The position numbers were made by a program, and so were the translations under genes. A stretch of 34,592 nt of DNA. It comes from Cyanodermella asteris. Its lineage: Eukaryota; Ascomycota; Lecanoromycetes; Ostropales; Stictidaceae. The notes beneath the pieces were generated by a model, which saw only the letters and a list, made by a program, of their open reading frames with translations, searched no databases and was not told where the DNA came from. This document shows, piece after piece, positions 338 through 31,956 of the stretch. The DNA is taken from contig UYJD01000001.1 in assembly GCA_900618795.1 (NCBI GenBank), forward strand, positions 1,300,442 to 1,335,033, read 5' to 3'. Numbering within the stretch: position 1 is the first letter of the stretch; each line of letters starts with the position of its first letter.

Positions 338-1285
338 TTAGGCAACGTTGAAGTACGTGGTACTGGTGCCAAGCAAAAAATGGATACATACTTTCCGGGA
401 TACATGTAGGTTGCTGCGAAGCAATCCGCCGCTCCACGTGACCATCGCATCAGCGATGTTGATCAATGCTCGACCAGGTTTGGGGGCCACGTGCTTCCAA
501 TATTCGTCTTCACTGCCCGCGCCGCCCGGTGGTAAGATTTGGAGGCCGCCAATCACGTTGAGCAGCATCGTTAAGACTCCGATATCCATATGCCCGAGGA
601 GGTTAGTTCGTGAGGTAGGTGAATCGTGAGTTGCCTTGAGGAGTCTGATTCCAGAGCTCGATGGCTGATCGAAGAGATTCATCTGTGACAGCGAAGCTCG
701 TGGTAGCCGCATATGGTCCTCAACGTAATGCAGCACCGTTTCCAGCACAGGGTGCGCTTTCTCGAGGAAAGACTGAAAGAAGGGTTTTCGAGATTCGAGC
801 AAAGGTGGATCAAGCCTTGCTGATCCCACGTCGATGATACTGTCGCGGGTGAAATTGTACATTTCGATATTCTCCGGTCTGCCATCCTCGATCTTGGTGA
901 TACCAACGCATTTATAACTGGCGAAAGTCAGTACTCCTCGGAAAACTGTCCCTTTCTTGCTAGAAGTGCCGTCCAAATATGCTGCTTACCCATGTAAGTC
1001 TCGCGATGGATAGTAATTGTGCTGATCTAGTTCATCTTTGGGCAGACTATACAGTCCTCCCGAAATAGCAAAGAGCTCCTCGACCCCTTCCAGGATCTGT
1101 CTCCCCTCAGTTGAGTCTGTCAGATCGATATTGCAGAAGCCGGTCAGTCTGCATGCCTTGAACAAGCGCAATGATTCCTCTGGGTCATTTGACTGTAGCT
1201 TGGAGTACGATAGCTCGACGATCGGAAAGGTTTCAGTATGAATCGAGAACGTTGGGAAGCTGCTAAGATACTCCGACGACGGCAT
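338..1285 (-). pseudogene. 2-oxoglutarate/Fe(II) oxygenase, C-terminally truncated
   Basis: Isopenicillin-N-synthase-like dioxygenase. Exon 1 is 1285-990 and exon 2 is 917-338. The 72-nt intron 918-989 has GTAAGC, a TACTGAC branch and CAG, and restores the family motif HGYKCVG across the junction. The N-terminal DIOX_N region (about residues 13-100) is followed by the double-stranded beta-helix with the iron ligands HMD (in GHMDIGVLT) and the distal His in RSNLH. Directly after that His, homologs have RV, a variable stretch and the R-x-S motif that binds 2-oxoglutarate. Here the frame runs into about 20 unrelated residues and stops, giving 291 residues against the usual 320-360. No continuation was found in any frame down to position 1, though an exon beyond the window edge cannot be excluded. 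The enzyme would bind iron but probably not the cosubstrate. Splicing and family are clear; loss of function is inferred. Confidence 0.75.
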
Positions 1286-6011: not shown

Positions 6012-7223
6012 TTACAGACCAAACTTTCCGATGCTCTCGCTCCCAACCCACTCCCGGCAGTGGTCGACGCCCTTGACAAGCACCATCATGGCCACCCCAA
6101 GCTCTTCCACATCGTCCGGAGACGCGGGAGCTATATCAGCATTCCAATCACTAAATCGAACGCGAATCCACGGCTTCTCACTCGCAGCCCGCTGTCACGC
6201 AAAACTACTCCCCGCCGACCACAGTGCCTGCTGCGCGAAAAACGACAAGCCCGCAAACCCGCTCTCGTCATACCAACCTTGTTTGAGGAACATGAATAGG
6301 CCGTCAATGGAGAAGCCTGCAGAGAGAGTCCTGCGAATGGATTCGTGTAGAAGCCAGTCGGTCCAGGTTTCGGCGTTGTAGTACTGTTGGTTCGGCACTA
6401 CCAGGTGGCTTTCCTCCTCGACGGATCTGTAGAACTTGCGGAGGTGCCGTAGGGATTGGACGAGCAGTGGAAGATGGGCCTCGGCTTCTGCTCGCATGGT
6501 TATGTCACCGCCAAAGAGTTGGATGATCTGGTAGAGGCACAGCGCTTGTGTGGCTGGTAGATGTGCCGGTAGGGGTGAGGTGTCTGGTGTAGCCAGGCCT
6601 TGTGCACATTTTCTGGAAGCTTGAGAGAGACACTGAAAGACGATACGTTCGTTATCGCTCTTTCGATGTGCGTAGAGAGAGCACATGCCCAGGGCTTCTT
6701 GTAAGGCGCCAGGAATCTCATTCGGATACAGACTGAAATTGATGAAAGGACAAAGCGTACCCTCTACGCAAGCAACAGGCCACTTCTTCAGCTGCTTCAC
6801 CGCATAGACGATACGCTCTTGATAGTCTCTGCCTGCAACGACCGTTCCGTGGTAGTGAGGGTTGACAGGTTTCGGCATTTGGTCGGGTACAATAAAGTCA
6901 TCGATGCTGTCCATGACCTCGTTTCAATCCAGATCGTGGTCTGGAAACTTCAACAGCCCAGACTCGTGGACCGTGTCGGTTAATGTAAATGGCATTTCAG
7001 CTGGGGAGTCTGTCAAGTTCGACGATGCTGCCATTCCCTGGGTCGTCTCTTGTGCCGCCGTGTCTCGCACCGCACGTCCTGTGGTGGAAGCTACGGCGGT
7101 AGCTACATAGGTGCATGATAGCTGTCGAGCGCAGCATCGATAGCATGGTGTTGCGAGATCACATCGACGCTTAGCTCTTGCACACTGCTGACAGGACCTC
7201 TTATATGGACTTGGCATGGACAT
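6012..7223 (-). pseudogene. Zn2Cys6 transcription factor with two in-frame TGA codons
   Basis: A single continuous frame of 403 codons plus a TAA terminator, interrupted only by TGA at codon 100 (6924-6926) and codon 343 (6195-6197). Residues 11-37 form a canonical Zn2Cys6 cluster (C-x2-C-x6-C-x5-C-x2-C-x6-C, within RSCQQCARAKRRCD). After the first TGA the frame reads NEVMDSIDDFIVPDQMPKP and continues into the helical region typical of secondary-metabolite regulators (ALCLYQIIQLFGGD, then TWTDWLLHESIRRTLSAGF). After the second TGA it still reads as a family C terminus (SPDDVEELG, then VDHCREWVG). There are no frameshifts. From family resemblance I infer that both TGAs may replace Trp (LD-W-NEV and SSFA-W-QR). 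It would have been a nuclear pathway regulator. Either it is a recent nonsense allele or it is read through; no GT-AG intron removes either TGA. Confidence 0.82.
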
Positions 7224-14164: not shown

Positions 14165-16295
14165 ATGGCTCCAACCCCACGACCAACGCAGCAGCCGATA
14201 ACACCGAGCGTGAACCCTGATTATGTATCCTGGCAGCAACCAAGTATTCGCATCAGACGCCTACCGTCGAACAACGCAATACCGAGAGCAAGAGGAAGAG
14301 CAGCCACCACCAGTGCTGCGGGTCCGCCTCGACCTGGCAGGAGTGCAGAGTATGGAACTACGCCTCTGACTAGTGGTGGAGTGACACAAGAAGCCAGCTC
14401 TTCTTCGCGCGACCCTGGTAGCTACTTCACAACACAAGCGCCGTCAAGTTCGGCCGCAATACCGAGGAGTGAGACTGGGAGCAACCGACGCCAGGACGAT
14501 GGCCATCAAAGCGATACTCCCGATGGCGGACGTCGACGATCCAGCTCGGATCCGACGCGAAGCCACTGGAACTCCCTTCAGGCAGCTCACACGCCAGCTT
14601 TGAGGGGCTCGCAGAGTCGAAGCCACATGCCAGCGGTCCCAGAGGTCGAAGGCTCGCCGGACGCGACGCAAGGCTTGCCGGAACCTTTCCCACCCGTCGC
14701 CCCGGAGGAAGAGATGGTCAGACTGGGACTTGGGAGGCGATTGACGAATGCATTGCGGCCTTCGTCCCGTACAACGCCTGCGGCGCCAGTGGCCAATGCC
14801 AGACAAGGGACTGTTGATGACCAGTATGAAAGGCAGATGGTAAACGTTCTTGACACCATCGGTAAGTTTGTCCACCCAGCTGGTGTTAAAGTACTTACGG
14901 CTGACGTGATCAAGACCCTGAGATCTCGACGCTAAACACTTTAACCAACGTACAAAACTCCTTGTTCGTACCCAGCTTGGGCAAATACCTGAATCGAACA
15001 CCTACATACACCCTTACGAGACACGCATCACAAGGCACATTCGCTGGGACGATCGCAGAGAAGCCGAAAGCCGAAGAGGCAGCAGATAGGATACCGGAGG
15101 ACCTCGGAAGGCTCGCACGGCAGCACACAACAGCCTCGTTGACCTCGAACTTGGACAATGACCATTTTGCGGTGCTCCCGCACGGAGAACGACTCGAGGG
15201 TTGGACGGCAGAAGACCGGGCGGAATTGAATGATCACGTCAGGCATTTATTACATTCAAGGAGAGAGGGCATCAAGAGAGGTTTCAAGGGATTCGGACAA
15301 TACGTGAGAAAGCGTGAGTGACACACGAGAATCTGTCCTTGACATTTCTGATGCATTTATAGCCCTTGGGTTCTTCGTTACGGTCTATGCAACGTTGATT
15401 ACTTTATTCGGAGCAGCCTGGGTGCTTTTCTTGATCGGTATGTTCCACGCAGTTAGTGCAGAAGAAGGTGGCTAACATGAGGGACCTAGGCTGGATCAAT
15501 GTTGGAGGCAGAAAGGATTACATCGTCAACGTAATCGACAACGTTTTAGTGGCCCTTTTTGCCATCATGGGAGACGGTCTCGCTCCTTTCAGAGCCGTCG
15601 ACACATATCATATGTGCTTCATAGCGCACTACCATCACCTGACATGGCGTCTGCGAAAGGAACAGGCTCTACCGAAGCTCCAAAACCACAACGACCTCCC
15701 TGGCCTCGACGAGAAATGTGACATTGACGCGGAGGGCCAAAACAGCAAGCCGGCAGAGTATAGTGTCCTGAATCCGAAGCAGCAGGCACGACTCGAACAC
15801 CATCAGAAGAAGTTCGCACGTTCTCACACATTCTACAAACCACACGAAACCGAGACGCATTTCGCATTCCCACTCCGCATCCTCGTTGCTGTGGTAGTAC
15901 TGTTAGACTGTCACTCCCTCCTACAAATCTCGCTGGGAGCATGTACTTGGGGAATCGATTACAGGGTTCGACCGTTTGCTCTGACAACCGTCATTCTCTG
16001 CTGCTCAATTACCTGCAATATCACGGCTGGAGTCCTTATCTCGATAGGCGATAGGCGGACACGGAAGAAGGATGTTCTCGAACGCATGTTTAGACAGGAG
16101 CTGACCGCACAAGCCATAGAAAAGTTTGAGAAGCGGCATCAGAAGGAGAGTGAGCGGAACGAAGTTCTCGAGGTCCCCGGCGCCGATACATCGACGCCGG
16201 AACCTGGCCTTCACCGACTCGTGAGTGAGAAGAGTGGGAAGAGTGAAAAGTCACGCGAACGTGTACGGCAGGCGAGCCTAGAAGGGCATGACTAG
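14165..16295 (+). CDS. DUF2985-family integral membrane protein
   Basis: Four exons, 14165-14861, 14915-15313, 15363-15437 and 15490-16295, give 658 residues. The introns are 53, 49 and 52 nt, all GT-AG with branch-like CTGAC/CTGATG/CTAAC. The first 230 residues are a disordered Ser/Pro/Arg-rich region (MAPTPRPTQQPITPS). Then a helical cytosolic region ends in RRGFKGFGQYVRK-like basic sequence. The DUF2985 core follows: TM LGFFVTVYATLITLFGAAWVLFLI, GWINVGGRKDYIVNVIDN, VALFAIMGDGLAPFRAVDTY and HHLTWRLRKEQ. Two more hydrophobic segments (FPLRILVAVVVLLDCHSLLQ; LTTVILCCSITCNITAGVLI) come before a charged coiled tail. The family is widespread in filamentous fungi and has no firmly assigned function. 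All splice junctions keep frame and family motifs, so the model is secure. Confidence 0.92.
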
Positions 16296-22565: not shown

Positions 22566-25500
22566 CTAATCGGTATTCCCGCAATGAATGTCGATCCACT
22601 GCCAGAGCTTCTGAAACAGCCTCCGATCGATAAGTCCCTTCTCATTCAGGTTCGGGCAGACCTCAATGGTTCGTTCCTGGCTGAACCAGGTCCCATCGCT
22701 TTCCGGATCGAAAAGCCCATCGCCCGCAGTCTCAGCTCTCGTCTTCCAAAGATTCAGCAACTTCTTCGCAGCATGGTCCTCCTGCAGTCCCTGCAGCTTC
22801 TCGATCCATATGGGCAAGGACATCACCCACAGGGGCTCAGGCCCAAAATCACTCTTCAGCCACTGGATGGCGTCGTTCCAGGTCGGTTCATTTGCACCGC
22901 CCTGTCTCAATACATGCCAGACCTTTGCTCCATCACCATTCGATGCAGTGGGAGTCGTGACGATCTGCAGCAATGCTTCAGCTGCTAGATCTACAGGCAA
23001 CCAGCATAGCGGTTCTGGACCAAGATCGGGTACTGCTCCCAAAGCTCGGGTAGCGCTGAGCATCAGCGGCCATGCTTCACTCATATTCCAGACTCCATTC
23101 TCGGTGTCACCGCAAAGCTGACCGACGCGGGCTATGTGAATGCATCCTTTGAGCCGTGTCTGAGTTGCTGCTTTCTCACAGATCGCTTCTGCTACCCACT
23201 TCGAGCGTGAGTAGCCAAGATGGGATGCATCCTCAGCATCACCTGATGTCATTTCCGAGATTCCTTCTTGCCTTGCCTTTGACCCGATGACGCTGGCTGT
23301 GGATGAGCAGAACAAGATCTGAGGTGGTTGAGGTCTTTGGCTGGAGAGAGCAAACACGATCATGTTGTGCACACCAGCAATATGATCATGCTCGAATGAG
23401 CGGAGTCGGGCGCTAAAGTTGACAGCCCACGCCGCATGAATGATCACATCGACTTTAGCAGCGAGCTTGCCATGGACTAAGTCTGACAAGCCGAGACTGT
23501 CTTCGCCAAGCTCCGCTGGGATGCAGATGACCTTTTTGGAGTCTTTCGTGATCGTTGTGCGTTTCCTGTGTATGAGCGATTTGGCGATACGCTCAAAGGC
23601 TGCGTGTTCATCAACTGCCCGGACAAGGCAGACTACCTTGCAAACATCGTCTCGCTTCAACAACTGGTCTAGAATATGGGCTCCTAGAGCTCCAGTGGCC
23701 CCGGTGAGGAGATATGTCTGACCTGTCACGGAGTCATTCGATGTTCTCGTAGTTCCGTTGGATTGCTTCGTTTCGCCCAAGGAACTATACTTCTTGACCA
23801 GGTTTTCCATCAAGTTAAGCTCGTTCTCGGTATCAAAACTTTGTCCCTTGCGATGCGCTATCAGAAATTTGGCCAGATTTTGTATAGTGCCACAGTCATA
23901 TATCACGTTGACTGGCAGGCTCTGAGCGCCTTCAGAATGCTTCTCCAATATGCTTCTTATTTGCATGCATGCAACAGAATCGACTCCTTGAGCGAAAAGA
24001 TCGGCATCCTCAGGCAATTCGTTTCCTTTGCCTGTAATATTTTGGACAACTTCTCTCACAAAATCCAGCACATCGCTCTCCGAATCCAGATCCCGATCAT
24101 TTGTGGTGGTATCCGTAGGCGTTGCCGATACGAGGTAGGCACCTTCAATAATCTCTTCATGTCGCTGCTCTACAGATCTCCGTAGAACTGTGCCCTTGCT
24201 GCTTTTCTCTGGTCTTGCCATATCTGCAGGAAGCACAATAAGCATGGACTTCGAAAGCCGAGCATGGGTCTGAGCCTCTTCGTTCAGACGATTGACGTCC
24301 GGCCAAATGGCCTCCACGACCTCTTCGGAAGCCATGTCATGTGCGTTGGAGGAACGCCATAACAAAGCACCAGGATATTGCTTGCCATTGCCAAAAACTA
24401 ACACATCGCTCAGCAACTGATTGACCGCGATGGCATCTTCCAAGGGCGCCGGATCGAACTTCTTGCCCGTAACAAGTGTCAGCTGCGAATCCGCTCTGGA
24501 GTGATAGCGCCACGCGTTCGGAATCGACGAATGAGGGGCAAATAGATCTGCTGTTGCATATGAATCATCTTCACGATTCCTCTTCACCAAGTGTGGCCAA
24601 TCGCTCAATACGATCAACTCTGATAAGCCGTCATCACGAGCCTCGAAGCGCAATGACTGCGTTTTGGGCCATGGTCGTAGATACTGCCACGACTGGTCCG
24701 TTTTGTAGTCACGATGAGATGATAGAAGAAAGCCACATTCAGCACTACCGAAGCGAGACACGAGGTTAACTCCTTTCCTGACAAGGTCGTTGCCGGCATA
24801 TTCTGGTAAAGCGGCACCTCCTACGCCCACAAGGTCCATGCCTCGGAGCACTTCCAAACCCTTTTCATCAGCAGCCAGAATCTGCAGAACGAACGGCACC
24901 GAACTGAAATACCTCACTGGCGGCAACTTCTTGGACACAACGCCCTGGTCAGTCAAAGCCAGCGAGGTCAAGATATTCCTGCTTGTGATGGGTATCGAAC
25001 CGGGAAAAAGCCATATCAAAGCACCGCTCGTCCAAGACCGAAAGCAATCGGCGATGCCACCATGGTATAAAGGTGTGGTGGTGAAGGCCGCAGCTGCAGC
25101 ACCGTCTAAGCAAGGTAGCACACCAACAGCAGCTCGATGCGTTTGGAGAATCGGCTTGGGAAGGCCGGTCGATGTGCCAGACGTATGGTGCAAGTATGCG
25201 ACGTCAAATTCGTCCACTTTCGGCCACTCGGTCCCATTGCTAGCTGTTGTAAAAAGCTTCGTTTGCAGAGATTCCCAATCAAAAGGTATCTCGAGGCACT
25301 GAAACGCGCCCTCACGCGCCGCACTCCGAGCAAGCTCCGAATAGATAGGATCGTACACAAGTTTTTCGACTTTGCATGTTTGGCAGAGGTGGGCGACTGC
25401 CCCCGGCTGACATTGTGGCGCGATGAGGAGGACGGCTGCTCCAGCGCGCATCAAACCGAGCCATGCGTACAGGAAGACCGGTGTGCTTCTGCAGAGCAGA

Positions 25501-25814
25501 GCGATCGTCTGTCTATGCTCTATACATGGATCCGAATCGCCTGCCTGGAAAATGGCTGCAGCTGATATCGACCCATTACGCAAATCGTTGAAGGTATAGA
25601 CGATGGAGTGGCCAGCCGCGTCACCATCTGCACCTTTCGAGTCGGCCGCATTCTGTGCATCAGGTATGTGGAAGGCTATCGCTGGGTGTTGTCCACGACT
25701 TTCGGCCTGTTCGTCAATCAGTGTGTTCACCGAAGTAAAGTTATGGGCTTTTTGGCCGTTGGCGTGTGCCGCCTGGTCTAGCGTACAAACGAAATAGTTC
25801 GGAGCAGCTGCCAT
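22566..25814 (-). CDS. NRPS-like adenylate-forming reductase (A-T-R)
   Basis: Intronless frame of 1082 residues from the ATG at 25814; the frame stays open 51 nt further but without an ATG. Adenylation domain about 25-550: phosphate loop HHTSGTSTGLPKP (about 209-221), VGVGGAALP, RFGSAECGF (about 354-362) and the C-terminal KGTVLRR. The carrier domain has the phosphopantetheine serine in DLFAQGVDSVACM (Ser613). The NAD(P)H-binding thioester reductase starts TYLLTGATGALGAHILD (about 700), with LFCSSTASVIG and catalytic Tyr/Lys in GYSRSKWVAE (about 867-872). Such enzymes activate a carboxylic acid with ATP, load it on the carrier arm and release it reductively as aldehyde or alcohol. No condensation domain is present, so no peptide bond is made. 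The substrate is unknown. All core motifs are intact, unlike the neighbouring P450. Confidence 0.93.
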   Translation of the reverse strand: MAAAPNYFVCTLDQAAHANGQKAHNFTSVNTLIDEQAESRGQHPAIAFHIPDAQNAADSKGADGDAAGHSIVYTFNDLRNGSISAAAIFQAGDSDPCIEHRQTIALLCRSTPVFLYAWLGLMRAGAAVLLIAPQCQPGAVAHLCQTCKVEKLVYDPIYSELARSAAREGAFQCLEIPFDWESLQTKLFTTASNGTEWPKVDEFDVAYLHHTSGTSTGLPKPILQTHRAAVGVLPCLDGAAAAAFTTTPLYHGGIADCFRSWTSGALIWLFPGSIPITSRNILTSLALTDQGVVSKKLPPVRYFSSVPFVLQILAADEKGLEVLRGMDLVGVGGAALPEYAGNDLVRKGVNLVSRFGSAECGFLLSSHRDYKTDQSWQYLRPWPKTQSLRFEARDDGLSELIVLSDWPHLVKRNREDDSYATADLFAPHSSIPNAWRYHSRADSQLTLVTGKKFDPAPLEDAIAVNQLLSDVLVFGNGKQYPGALLWRSSNAHDMASEEVVEAIWPDVNRLNEEAQTHARLSKSMLIVLPADMARPEKSSKGTVLRRSVEQRHEEIIEGAYLVSATPTDTTTNDRDLDSESDVLDFVREVVQNITGKGNELPEDADLFAQGVDSVACMQIRSILEKHSEGAQSLPVNVIYDCGTIQNLAKFLIAHRKGQSFDTENELNLMENLVKKYSSLGETKQSNGTTRTSNDSVTGQTYLLTGATGALGAHILDQLLKRDDVCKVVCLVRAVDEHAAFERIAKSLIHRKRTTITKDSKKVICIPAELGEDSLGLSDLVHGKLAAKVDVIIHAAWAVNFSARLRSFEHDHIAGVHNMIVFALSSQRPQPPQILFCSSTASVIGSKARQEGISEMTSGDAEDASHLGYSRSKWVAEAICEKAATQTRLKGCIHIARVGQLCGDTENGVWNMSEAWPLMLSATRALGAVPDLGPEPLCWLPVDLAAEALLQIVTTPTASNGDGAKVWHVLRQGGANEPTWNDAIQWLKSDFGPEPLWVMSLPIWIEKLQGLQEDHAAKKLLNLWKTRAETAGDGLFDPESDGTWFSQERTIEVCPNLNEKGLIDRRLFQKLWQWIDIHCGNTD

Positions 25815-26157
25815 AAATAGTTTGGCGGTAGCAAAACCAGTCAGCCTTTGTCTGCTCGAACTCAAGAGAAGAATATGAAGCGGTTGGGCGATGCAGGCTT
25901 GGGAAAGCCCACATCAAGGTGTGCGACACATCGATGACGACGGGACAGTCTGAAAACGGGGGCGGATACAGATCGTGATCGCAGCAACAGTAACCTCAAA
26001 CAACTCACAGATCAAAGGCAGCCCAAAAGCTTCAAAAATGAGCAATTATATCCGCTCTCTACACTCAGTTCTATGTCATGTAGTATTGACTTTCTCATAA
26101 TGGTTGTGCCAGGCACGCGTTCAGGGAAACCCATCACGGTCTGACGCTGTGAGCACC
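25815..26157. promoter_or_regulatory. promoter region of the NRPS-like gene
   Basis: 343 bp between the P450 relic and the NRPS-like start on the same strand. A TATAAT-like stretch on the minus strand lies near 26046-26052, about 230 nt from the ATG. No other motif was recognised. Confidence 0.35.
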
Positions 26158-27810
26158 CTAAGCTGTAGCATCTCCACCAACGTATTTAAGCCTCAGCCGT
26201 CCCATGGGAGGACTACTCGACACTCCGATCCATGGATCCTCGACACGCTTACGTCCGACGACTTCAATGTCATGATGTTCGAAACGGTGAATGAATATGC
26301 ATTTGATGACACGAGTGGCGAAAAGTCTTCCTGGACTGCTCTCTGTTCAGTATTCAATGCTATTCAACGACCATCATCTGATATCACTTACCAAGCATTG
26401 CGTCGGCATTCGAGGGAGTGGTATTGCCGGCCAATTTCTGACATGGACCTGCCATTTACTGGAATTTGCTTGCTTCTTGGGCCTGGCAGCCAGCAAGATG
26501 GTTTCCACTTATAGGGATCAGGGTACAGATCTTCGTCGTGATGGAGATCCCACAGAGGAAAGCCGACTTTGAAACCCTCGGGTACAAGGCCAATGCCAGG
26601 GACCTGCATGTCGGTCTTTTTCATCACCACCTGCGCTTCTTGAGATGAAGTTGCCCATGCGTAACGACTCCCGAAAGCTACGCCGAGTGTCACCCTCCTT
26701 CTTGCAGATGCGAGCCTGTTGATTCTCAGCTCGGATTTTGTGAATCAATGTTGTCTGGTCTGAGCCCGTGCTTCCCGCCTCCCTCGGATGACACACGGTT
26801 TCAACAATTGCGTTTTGATAGCAATAGTGGTGCTGTCAATACTGACGAAATTCATAACGCTCTCTCGTTTGGCTAGGAACTCGAGCATGATCTTGTGGAT
26901 TTTACCGACCTCCGTAGATTGATGAGCATCGAAGATTGCGCAAGTCACAAGGCCGTTTTGTGGCAAGCGATAAGACATATGTGATTCTGAGATCATAGAC
27001 GACGTACCGGTAAATGATGGTCAATTTGCATCTCAGTCAGTCTCGGGAAGTCTCCCTCCGCTCAGTCAGAAGCGGTTCGAGTTTCTGCGCAGCCTTGTGA
27101 CGAAAGTATCGGTCAGAAAGGCAAAGCAGCAAAGCCATGTATCAGCAAGGGCGTTAGCTGCTTGTGATGGATCCATAGACTTAAAGAACAACTGACGGGC
27201 GCAATATGCTTGGCATTATACCGATAGCTGCAACAATGAGCATCGTATATTGATTGAAGCTCGATGCACTGAAAAGAAGACCCAACCAAGGGTACGAACA
27301 GAGGTCGCAAACGTAGATTCTGGTGGCGACCCCATACCACTTGCCGCCTTCCGCAGCAACATTGGTCGCTAGAGCGACCAGCATCTCTTCGATCATTGCT
27401 TGTTCAAGCTGACGAAGACGCCGAGTGGGGTGTTTGGAGATTGCGCACTGGTAGATATGCTCGTGAATGATCGATGGGTCGAGTAAAACCCAATCTGCTC
27501 GCACGAATTGTCGATGCGCTTCGGATGAAGTAAGTTCCTCTTCACTCTGGTCGACAAACCAGTCCAGATAGGACAGGGGCAGCATGATCTCTGCACCGGT
27601 AAATCAGACGGAGAGAACGAACGCCCTGCCAGCCTTGGAGAACTGGAAGATTTCCACGTAAGCATACTCGCGAAACCAAGCTTGTGGACACCGTGCGGAC
27701 CTTCTTGTAACCTTCCTCGATTATCTTATGTCGCGACGACGCTTTTCAGCTAGGATATCCACCCCCATGGGAAACATCCACCACCAGGCCCAACACCTGG
27801 TATCTCAGCG
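26158..27810 (-). pseudogene. cytochrome P450, frameshifted
   Basis: Pieces of one fungal P450 lie in order in changing frames. The N-terminal region has EEGYKK (27717-27700), FSKAGRAFVLSV, a TGA at 27604-27606, then MLPLSYLDWFVDQSEEEL and DWVLLDPSIIHEH. The middle shows LIVAAIGIMPSILRP, RYFRHKAAQKLEPLL and FRESLRMGNFISRS. Then, one frame over, come MKKTDMQVPGIGLVPEGFKV and DLHHDEDLYPDPYKW. A 56-nt intron (26336-26391, GTAAGT to AGCAG) splits the haem-ligand cysteine codon and gives RRNA-CPGRLFATRVIK, ending at TAG 26158. Frames change at least three times; a stop also replaces a plausible Trp in WIS-stop-LKS near 27735. The haem loop lacks FG-x-G (it reads LECRRNAC). Microsomal monooxygenase by family; inactive here. 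It lies directly upstream of the NRPS-like gene on the same strand, so it was probably once its cluster partner. Confidence 0.8.
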
Positions 27811-30884: not shown

Positions 30885-31956
30885 TCATGCACCCCGGCTC
30901 ACGTCAAGGTTCTTTGCCAGTATCACCTGGGCCTGGACCATGGGTCTTGCACCGTCTATGCTCACCTCGGCCTTGACTTGTTCGATCAAACTTCTCGCCC
31001 TCTCTTGACTCCAGCCCGCGTCCCGCGTCAGGAGCCGTAAACCTCGAGCCTCGAGCCCCTCGAGCATAGCCACGGCCGCCATGCGACCGATGCGGTGATC
31101 TCAATGACTGGTACTCCATTCGCCGAGGGCCACTGCTGGCTTGAAAGTTCTTTGGATTTTCAGGCCCACCGCCTCGAGTAGCTCGGCACGGGCGTGGCGC
31201 AAGTCCAACAAGCCACTCAATCCACGACTAGATGCGGCAGATGACAAGGCTGTATTGTAGGCGGCTAGAGCAAGTGACGCTTCTGAGGATGAGGCAGCAG
31301 ATGGTCCTGCATCAGCTTGTGAAGATGGAGTGCCGGACGATGGCGAAAGCCCGGGAAGAGAAATGGCACCAAAGTCCATGGTCTCGAACGAGCCGCGTGG
31401 CTTGAGACAGCGATAGATCTCGGAGTATATTCCTGGAAGCTCTTGTTCTGTGAAGGCGCCAGCGAGGCCGCGCATGTGGATGAAATCGAAGTAGTCGCTT
31501 TCGAAAGTCCATGGAATAGACCGAGCGTCGCCAATCTGAAAATGTAGGTTCGAAGGGATGTGACCCGCTGCAGAGCCAATTTCTGAGCTGATGTCTGTTG
31601 CGATAATCTGAGAGGTGGGATGTTTGAGGGCTGCCGCAATCGCCCAATCGCCCGGGCCCGTGCCAATGTCGAGGATCCGTAGGGGGGTGCTGGTAGACAA
31701 GTATGTCATGGAAAGTTTACGGTCGAGAAGGAGAAGGAAGGCTTGATGCTGTATAGACAAACGAGTTGCCTCGTCCGGATCGTCCGGAAGTATGCAAGTA
31801 TCGTTCGCGTATTGGCGCCCATTCTCTGAGACTCGTGTGGAAGACGGATCATGCTCGCTGGGGATCGACTCTCTGTACGACAGTGATAATCAGTGACACA
31901 TCTCACTTGGATGAGGAAGACTGGCGAGAATGCTGTGCCACTTTGTCCGGAAGCAT
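30885..31956 (-). pseudogene. LaeA-like SAM methyltransferase with one in-frame TGA
   Basis: Exon 1 is 31956-31907 (MLPDKVAQHSRQSSSS) and exon 2 starts at 31857 after a 49-nt intron (GTGAGA...CCCCAG); a 34-nt alternative ending TACAG is also in frame. The frame includes ENGRQYAN, ILPDDPDEATRLSIQHQAF, SAM motif I LRILDIGTGPGDWAIA (about 77-90), ATDIS, QIGDARSIPW, FDFIHMRGL and LKPRGSFETMDF, all as in fungal LaeA-type methyltransferases. A TGA at 31101-31103 (codon 269) interrupts the frame. Another 71 codons follow in the same frame: DHRIGRMAAVAMLEGLEARG, LLTRDAGWS and VQAQVILAKN, which is the family C terminus, closed at 30885. The truncated product keeps the Rossmann core but loses the C-terminal cap. 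It could still be folded; nonsense allele or readthrough. Confidence 0.78.

What the first reader, a model, noticed from the sequence alone, without database searches (positions are those of the whole stretch)
6012..7223. Zn2Cys6 regulator open for 403 codons except two TGA codons, both at probable Trp positions
There are no frameshifts, the zinc cluster is perfect, and the sequence after each TGA still resembles the family, including the extreme C terminus. Random decay would normally add indels or other stops. Either the allele is very young, or the TGAs are read through or otherwise tolerated. Protein from the first ATG alone would be a DNA-binding domain without an effector region, a possible dominant competitor.
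Basis: partly seen in the sequence, partly recalled or inferred. Interest (0 to 1): 0.72.

Follow-up and report, generated by a model that had tools for sequence, protein, structure and literature searches.

The report
Freshly broken fungal regulator gene
A fungal gene for a DNA-binding regulator is cut short by two stop codons and most likely is a recently disabled gene; a second gene nearby is cut short the same way, so this looks like ordinary gene loss and not a new way of reading stop codons.

Summary
Largely real. On the minus strand, 7223-6012, a Zn2Cys6 regulator frame runs 403 codons to TAA, broken only by TGA at codons 100 and 343. The zinc cluster passes Pfam's cut-off. The one recognisable paralog in the genome has Trp at codon 343; codon 100 could not be tested. 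Family resemblance of the extreme C terminus was not detectable.

Candidate introns over the TGAs score like random exon positions. Neither TGA has the UGA-CU(A) readthrough context, and both have G before the A, which fungal A-to-I editing disfavours. A limited sample of other families gives no sign that TGA is generally a sense codon.

A third in-frame TGA without intron signal lies in a methyltransferase gene of the window (31103-31101), where two paralogs have Arg and Gln, not Trp. A P450 nearby is probably a relic. This points to local nonsense decay, not a special use of TGA at Trp.

Best reading: a young single-copy pseudogene or loss-of-function allele, whose likely product is a 99-residue zinc-cluster fragment. 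Whether the stops are fixed, segregating or errors needs reads or sister genomes not held here.

The parts
6927..7223 (-). N-terminal piece, 99 codons from ATG; the only product if TGA100 terminates
7107..7199 (-). Zn2Cys6 zinc cluster (residues 9-39)
   Evidence: Pfam Zn_clus 24.3 bits, cut-off 21; three PDB relatives of weak E-value 0.009-0.34
6924..6926 (-). in-frame TGA, codon 100, context GAT TGA AAC
   Evidence: residue expected here not testable
6198..6923 (-). middle piece, 242 codons, probable regulatory (middle homology) region
   Evidence: Fungal_trans 16.6 bits, below cut-off; paralog L061 pairwise blastp 3.5e-8, genome-wide E 0.113; codon usage rank 160 of 208 live windows
6195..6224 (-). 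LW-x7-stop motif; paralog L061 has LW-x7-W
6195..6197 (-). in-frame TGA, codon 343, context GCG TGA CAG; Trp in paralog L061
6012..6194 (-). C-terminal piece, 60 codons and TAA; frame open, homology not detectable
31104..31889 (-). SAM-methyltransferase gene, part before its premature TGA
   Evidence: Pfam Methyltransf_25 54.4 bits
31101..31103 (-). third in-frame TGA; Arg (L097) or Gln (L099) in paralogs, no intron signal (best 8.5)
30888..31100 (-). methyltransferase C-terminal part after the TGA, aligned with paralogs
   Evidence: best other match in the genome alone has only E 0.122, but lies just downstream of the best match of the main part
26391..26744 (-). P450 fragment, probably part of a relic that reaches to about 27603 (extent judged by eye): frame changes and stops, no heme-loop motif in any frame
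   Evidence: no intron-aware model was made
918..989 (-). control: canonical 72-nt intron of the 2OG oxygenase gene that removes an in-frame TAA (988-986)

Best explanation
A young, single-copy (unitary) pseudogene or loss-of-function allele of a fungal Zn2Cys6 regulator. Two separate nonsense substitutions ended the frame at codons 100 and 343. Translation stops at codon 100 and gives at most a 99-residue zinc-cluster fragment without the regulatory region; the transcript is probably a target of nonsense-mediated decay. The rest of the frame has not yet had time to collect frameshifts. The same process has put a premature TGA into a methyltransferase gene about 24 kb away, and a probable older case, a P450, lies between them. 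Shown: the frame, the two stops, the zinc cluster, Trp in the paralog at codon 343, absence of intron signals, the third TGA. Inferred: termination in the cell, age, and loss of function.
For: Stops and frame. No second close copy of the middle and C pieces was found in the genome, so not a dead duplicate of a close relative. Codon 343 at a Trp of the paralog. No intron signal: best scores 8 and 9, reached by 65% and 36% of 294 random exon positions, against 11.5-13 for 8 of 13 paralogs with a same-frame continuation and for the 2OG oxygenase, a level reached by 0 of 294. Codon usage of the middle and C pieces normal and no RIP-like dinucleotide bias, hence young. A third premature TGA in the methyltransferase at a non-Trp site and a probable P450 relic suggest that genes of this window are being lost. 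TGA is not unexpected: 41 of 144 one-step routes to a stop in this frame end in TGA.
Against: No frameshift and two stops of one kind. The three intron-less premature stops that I recognised outside the P450 are all TGA: about 2% by chance if each had the 28% share of one-step routes, about 19% with the 57% share of TGA (43 of 75, my count) among all same-frame pairs listed; chosen after the fact. No ortholog, read or transcript was available, so inactivity is inferred. Codon usage would look the same if the gene were still used.
Confidence: 0.72

Rival explanations
1. Base-call error or an allele that segregates in the species: other isolates or the reads carry an intact gene, so the gene as a whole is alive.
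For: Codon usage is that of a live gene and there is no indel. Same-species copies could not be looked up.
Against: Two single-base errors in one frame and a third in the methyltransferase would be needed; long-read errors are mostly indels (recalled).
Confidence: 0.12
2. The truncated products are used: a 99-residue zinc-cluster protein competes for promoter sites, or the 239-residue second frame (ATG at 6914, nine bases after TGA100) is made on its own.
For: The zinc cluster is intact; a second frame with ATG starts at 6914. A comparable zinc-cluster-only product through intron retention is described for AN1569 of Aspergillus nidulans (PMC8396895, passages).
Against: Pfam finds only Zn_clus in the fragment, so no recognised dimerisation element; the second frame is itself cut at codon 343, before the Trp that the paralog has.
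Confidence: 0.07
3. Both TGAs are decoded, by readthrough, A-to-I editing or a suppressor tRNA, so that a full-length regulator is made under some condition.
For: Codon 343 is at a Trp site; an inosine in the third place of UGA would read as Trp (recalled); fungi do restore premature UAG stops by editing (PMC4817773, PMC11156358, passages). TGA343 is followed by C, and in the centroid (not the minimum-energy) fold its A lies in a loop closed by two pairs. The 61 bases around TGA100 fold slightly better than shuffles (z -2.1, 6 of 200 as good).
Against: The described fungal readthrough motif is UGA-CU(A) (PMC4207609, passages); here it is UGA-AA and UGA-CA. In Fusarium editing the base before the A is U in 85.7% and G in 5.0%, and GAC is named as rarely edited; the A of TGA343 has the GAC context. 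In the minimum-energy folds neither A lies in a hairpin loop. A tRNA pattern with a UCA anticodon hits 51 times against 42 for its reversed control, and the 3 of 51 that I tested are not tRNAs by ARAGORN. No TGA inside 80 matches of three other families, though 3 TGA beside 3 TAG occur in 103 zinc-cluster matches and 1 TGA in 10 methyltransferase matches. The third TGA is not at a Trp site.
Confidence: 0.05
4. Introns with unusual signals remove one or both TGAs.
For: An in-frame stop in the 2OG oxygenase of the window is removed by an intron. The intron score is not fully sensitive: 5 of 13 paralogs with a same-frame continuation scored below 11.5.
Against: Best candidates score as random exon positions; an intron over codon 343 would remove all or part of the LW-x7-W motif.
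Confidence: 0.04

Closest known systems
Pseudogenes of fungal transcription factors (A. nidulans AN0737 and AN1887 named as possible cases in PMC8396895; a PnPf2-like pseudogene in Parastagonospora, PMC6152946; passages only)
   Same: Loss of a recognisable regulator gene, in a genome with other lost genes
   Different: The A. nidulans cases are described as probable duplicates; no close duplicate was found here, and the lesions seen are only two stops
PUK1-like pseudogenes restored by A-to-I editing in Fusarium graminearum (PMC4817773, passages)
   Same: Open frame interrupted only by in-frame stops, one at a Trp site
   Different: Those stops are UAG with U before the edited A; here UGA with G before it; no sign of restoration
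Functional UGA-CU(A) readthrough in fungi (PMC4207609, passages)
   Same: UGA stop and an open frame after it
   Different: The motif is absent at both sites; two stops would have to be passed

Membership tests
Zn2Cys6 fungal transcription factor | C-x2-C-x6-C-x5..12-C-x2-C-x6..8-C zinc cluster | tested here: met
   Pfam Zn_clus 24.3 bits, cut-off 21; motif read; the spacing rule is recalled
Zn2Cys6 fungal transcription factor | middle homology (Fungal_trans) region | tested here: inconclusive
   16.6 bits, below the cut-off of 23; paralog pairwise blastp 3.5e-8, genome-wide E 0.113
Pseudogene | premature stop or frameshift that removes a needed domain | tested here: met
   TGA100 before the probable regulatory region
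Pseudogene | no splicing, editing or readthrough that restores the frame | tested here: inconclusive
   sequence signals absent or poor; no RNA or protein data
Pseudogene | relaxed selection against orthologs | not testable with these tools
   I had no fungal genome other than the window's own
A-to-I restored pseudogene (PUK1 type) | UAG stop with U before the edited A | tested here: not met
   UGA with G before the A at both sites; preference
A-to-I restored pseudogene (PUK1 type) | edited A in a hairpin loop | tested here: inconclusive
   not in either minimum-energy fold; in the centroid fold of TGA343 in a loop closed by two pairs
Programmed UGA readthrough (UGA-CU type) | UGA followed by CU(A) | tested here: not met
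   UGA-AAC and UGA-CAG; motif

The most novel reading that the evidence does not exclude
The regulator is held off by two UGA codons that are decoded only in a particular state of the fungus, so that full-length protein is made through editing or readthrough at two sites, and a methyltransferase nearby is gated in the same way.
Probability: 0.04. Interest if true: 0.75.

Novelty: new member of a known kind. Interest (0 to 1): 0.2.

Why it matters
If it is what it seems, it is one more case of young gene loss around fungal metabolite-type genes, useful to population geneticists of this species. It would matter more only if RNA or protein data showed that the UGAs are decoded: editing or readthrough of two UGA codons in one regulator was not described in the passages I saw, which is no full search of the literature.

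Tried and rejected
Orthologs: the only scan of genome contigs (bacteria and archaea) gave one hit, L093, a Sphingomonas contig; its match crosses a stop upstream of what looks like the release-factor gene prfB (recognised by eye) and I take it as chance. I did not scan viral contigs.

Introns over either TGA: rejected on scores against 294 random exon positions; not fully sensitive (5 of 13 paralogs below 11.5, and one of the eight above, L061, may be that gene's true end).

TGA as a sense codon genome-wide: MFS_1 10 matches, adh_short 20, Methyltransf_25 50; in-match stops 1 TAA and 1 TAG, no TGA; these scored only 9 of 304, 19 of 203 and 50 of 76 candidates. Elsewhere TGAs do occur inside matches: in the 103 Zn_clus matches four rows show stops, 3 TGA and 3 TAG in all, and 1 of 10 matches of the methyltransferase search holds a TGA. 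I did not look into these.

Enrichment of TGA among intron-less same-frame interruptions in the 80 regulator loci: 14 TGA, 6 TAG, 5 TAA. These include antisense and untranslated stretches, and TGA makes up 43 of the 75 same-frame pairs listed for the window (my count), so not informative.

Suppressor tRNA: pattern hits near background; 3 of 51 looked tRNA-like, were fetched and gave no tRNA in ARAGORN.

C-terminal homology: not detectable. Repeat-induced point mutation: no bias. Coding scores of the zinc-cluster part are low (rank 3 of 67 paralogs), which I cannot interpret; because of this the TGA100 pair does not pass the filter.

Full report
What is there. On the minus strand a frame begins with ATG at 7223 and ends with TAA at 6014-6012. 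It holds two in-frame stops, both TGA: codon 100 (6926-6924) and codon 343 (6197-6195). Simulated sequence of the same composition had 15.0 stops on average and never two or fewer in 4000 trials. The first 99 codons hold a Zn2Cys6 cluster above Pfam's cut-off. The middle 242 codons match Fungal_trans only weakly (16.6 bits, cut-off 23), and the last 60 match nothing. The finding gives plus-strand coordinates for a minus-strand gene; otherwise its coordinates are right.

Where the window lies. It is part of a 28.5-Mb genome in 25 contigs with at least 103 zinc-cluster matches, in all likelihood a filamentous ascomycete (my recognition from its genes; no tool named it). Neighbours recognised by Pfam are a 2OG oxygenase, an O-methyltransferase, an alpha/beta hydrolase, a DUF2985 gene, an adenylating reductase of the NRPS-like type, a P450 fragment, RNA polymerase I A49 and a SAM-methyltransferase.

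Is codon 343 a Trp site? The middle piece has one recognisable paralog in the genome, at C6:792-794 kb. It is weak at genome scale (E 0.113), clearer among the 3855 segments of 80 fetched regulator loci (E 0.0054) and in a pairwise comparison (3.5e-8). The alignment is collinear over W-x-DW-x-L-x-ES and on to LW-x7-W, where our gene has LW-x7-stop. Two further regulator loci, L071 and L079, have LW-x-A-x5-W, but one search did not find them as relatives, so they count as motif evidence only. Among 68 places with [LIVMF]W-x-[AS] in sense-strand frames of 67 loci, 5 have W at that distance; about one would be expected from a Trp frequency of 1.5%. Trp at codon 343 is therefore well supported, mainly by one alignment. 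Codon 100 is in a linker that does not align; Trp there is a guess.

Does the frame after codon 343 belong to the protein? Codon usage says it may (rank 75 of 208 windows of live paralogs), but homology with the paralog's tail is not above shuffles (z 0.78), so this part of the finding is not confirmed.

Splicing. I scored every GT-AG stretch of a length divisible by three that spans a stop. Random positions in 49 uninterrupted paralog frames gave a median of 8 and a 99% point of 11 (294 positions). Eight of 13 paralogs with a same-frame continuation, and the 2OG oxygenase of the window, score 11.5 to 13; in the oxygenase the 72-nt intron restores a context familiar from that enzyme family (recognised from memory). 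The two TGAs of the regulator score 8 and 9. Five of the 13 paralogs also score below 11.5, and one of the eight (L061) may be that gene's true end, so the test is strong but not complete.

Readthrough and editing. The described fungal readthrough motif is UGA-CU(A) (PMC4207609, passages); the regulator has UGA-AA and UGA-CA. Fungal A-to-I editing restores UAG stops and prefers U before the A; G there makes up 5.0% of sites and GAC is rarely edited (PMC4817773, passages; PMC11156358, passages). An inosine in UGA would give Trp, so the idea is attractive, but the context is poor at both sites. In the minimum-energy folds of 61 bases neither A sits in a hairpin loop; in the centroid fold the A of TGA343 sits in a loop closed by two pairs. 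I saw no sign of a general use of TGA as a sense codon: 80 matches of three other families are crossed by one TAA and one TAG and no TGA. The samples are small, and TGAs do occur inside 3 zinc-cluster rows (TAGs occur there too) and in 1 of 10 rows.

A third TGA. A scan of the whole window for frames that continue after one stop showed the same situation in the SAM-methyltransferase gene: TGA at 31103-31101, coding scores 16.0 before and 6.2 after it, best intron score 8.5. I aligned it with three of its nine other matches. The sequence after the stop follows the C-terminal part of the enzyme, and the stop stands where L097 has Arg and L099 Gln (in L098 the stretch is one residue longer, with Glu or Lys near). 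By itself the part after the stop finds its best relative only at E 0.122, but that match lies just downstream of the best match of the main part, in one open frame. This TGA is not at a Trp site. A P450 fragment with no heme-loop motif in any frame is probably a relic, though I made no intron-aware model and one of its stops has an intron score of 11.5. Together these suggest that several genes of this window are being lost by ordinary nonsense changes.

How surprising are two clean TGAs? In this frame 144 of 3636 single-base changes give a stop, 41 of them TGA, so two TGAs have a chance near 8%, or 11% if only transitions count. Mutation-accumulation counts of wild-type aspergilli (58 substitutions and 5 indels, 10 and 2, 32 and 18; PMC6844060, passages), with two thirds of indels taken as frameshifts (assumption), give a chance of about 1 to 17% that two lesions are both nonsense. 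That is mild, after-the-fact evidence, and fits a loss so young that only a few per cent of neutral change has passed (inference).

Conclusion. Most likely a young unitary pseudogene or loss-of-function allele whose product, if any, is a zinc-cluster fragment. A sequencing error or segregating allele is the main rival and cannot be tested here. The special readings (editing, readthrough, a dominant competitor) are not excluded but have little positive support beyond the Trp at codon 343.

Noticed in passing
window 31101-31103 (- strand): Premature TGA without intron signal in a SAM-methyltransferase gene; two paralogs have Arg and Gln there and the C-terminal part continues in frame.
   Followed up: yes
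window 26391-26744, perhaps to 27603 (- strand): Probable cytochrome P450 relic beside the NRPS-like reductase: signature fragment, frame changes, several stops, no heme-loop motif.
   Followed up: partly
L042 (G000:C15:30900-34100, - strand): Another Zn2Cys6 regulator, within about 34 kb of a contig end, with an in-frame TAA about 105 residues after the start of the zinc cluster and 242 further residues in frame; best intron score only 6.
   Followed up: partly
window 918-989 (- strand): In-frame TAA of the 2OG oxygenase is removed by a canonical 72-nt intron (GTAAGC ... CTGAC ... CCAG).
   Followed up: yes
window 22569-25913 (- strand): NRPS-like adenylating reductase (AMP-binding, PP-binding, NAD_binding_4), 1115 codons open; its product is unknown.
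   Followed up: no
window 15435-16292 (+ strand): Frame with a DUF2985 match, function unknown.
   Followed up: no
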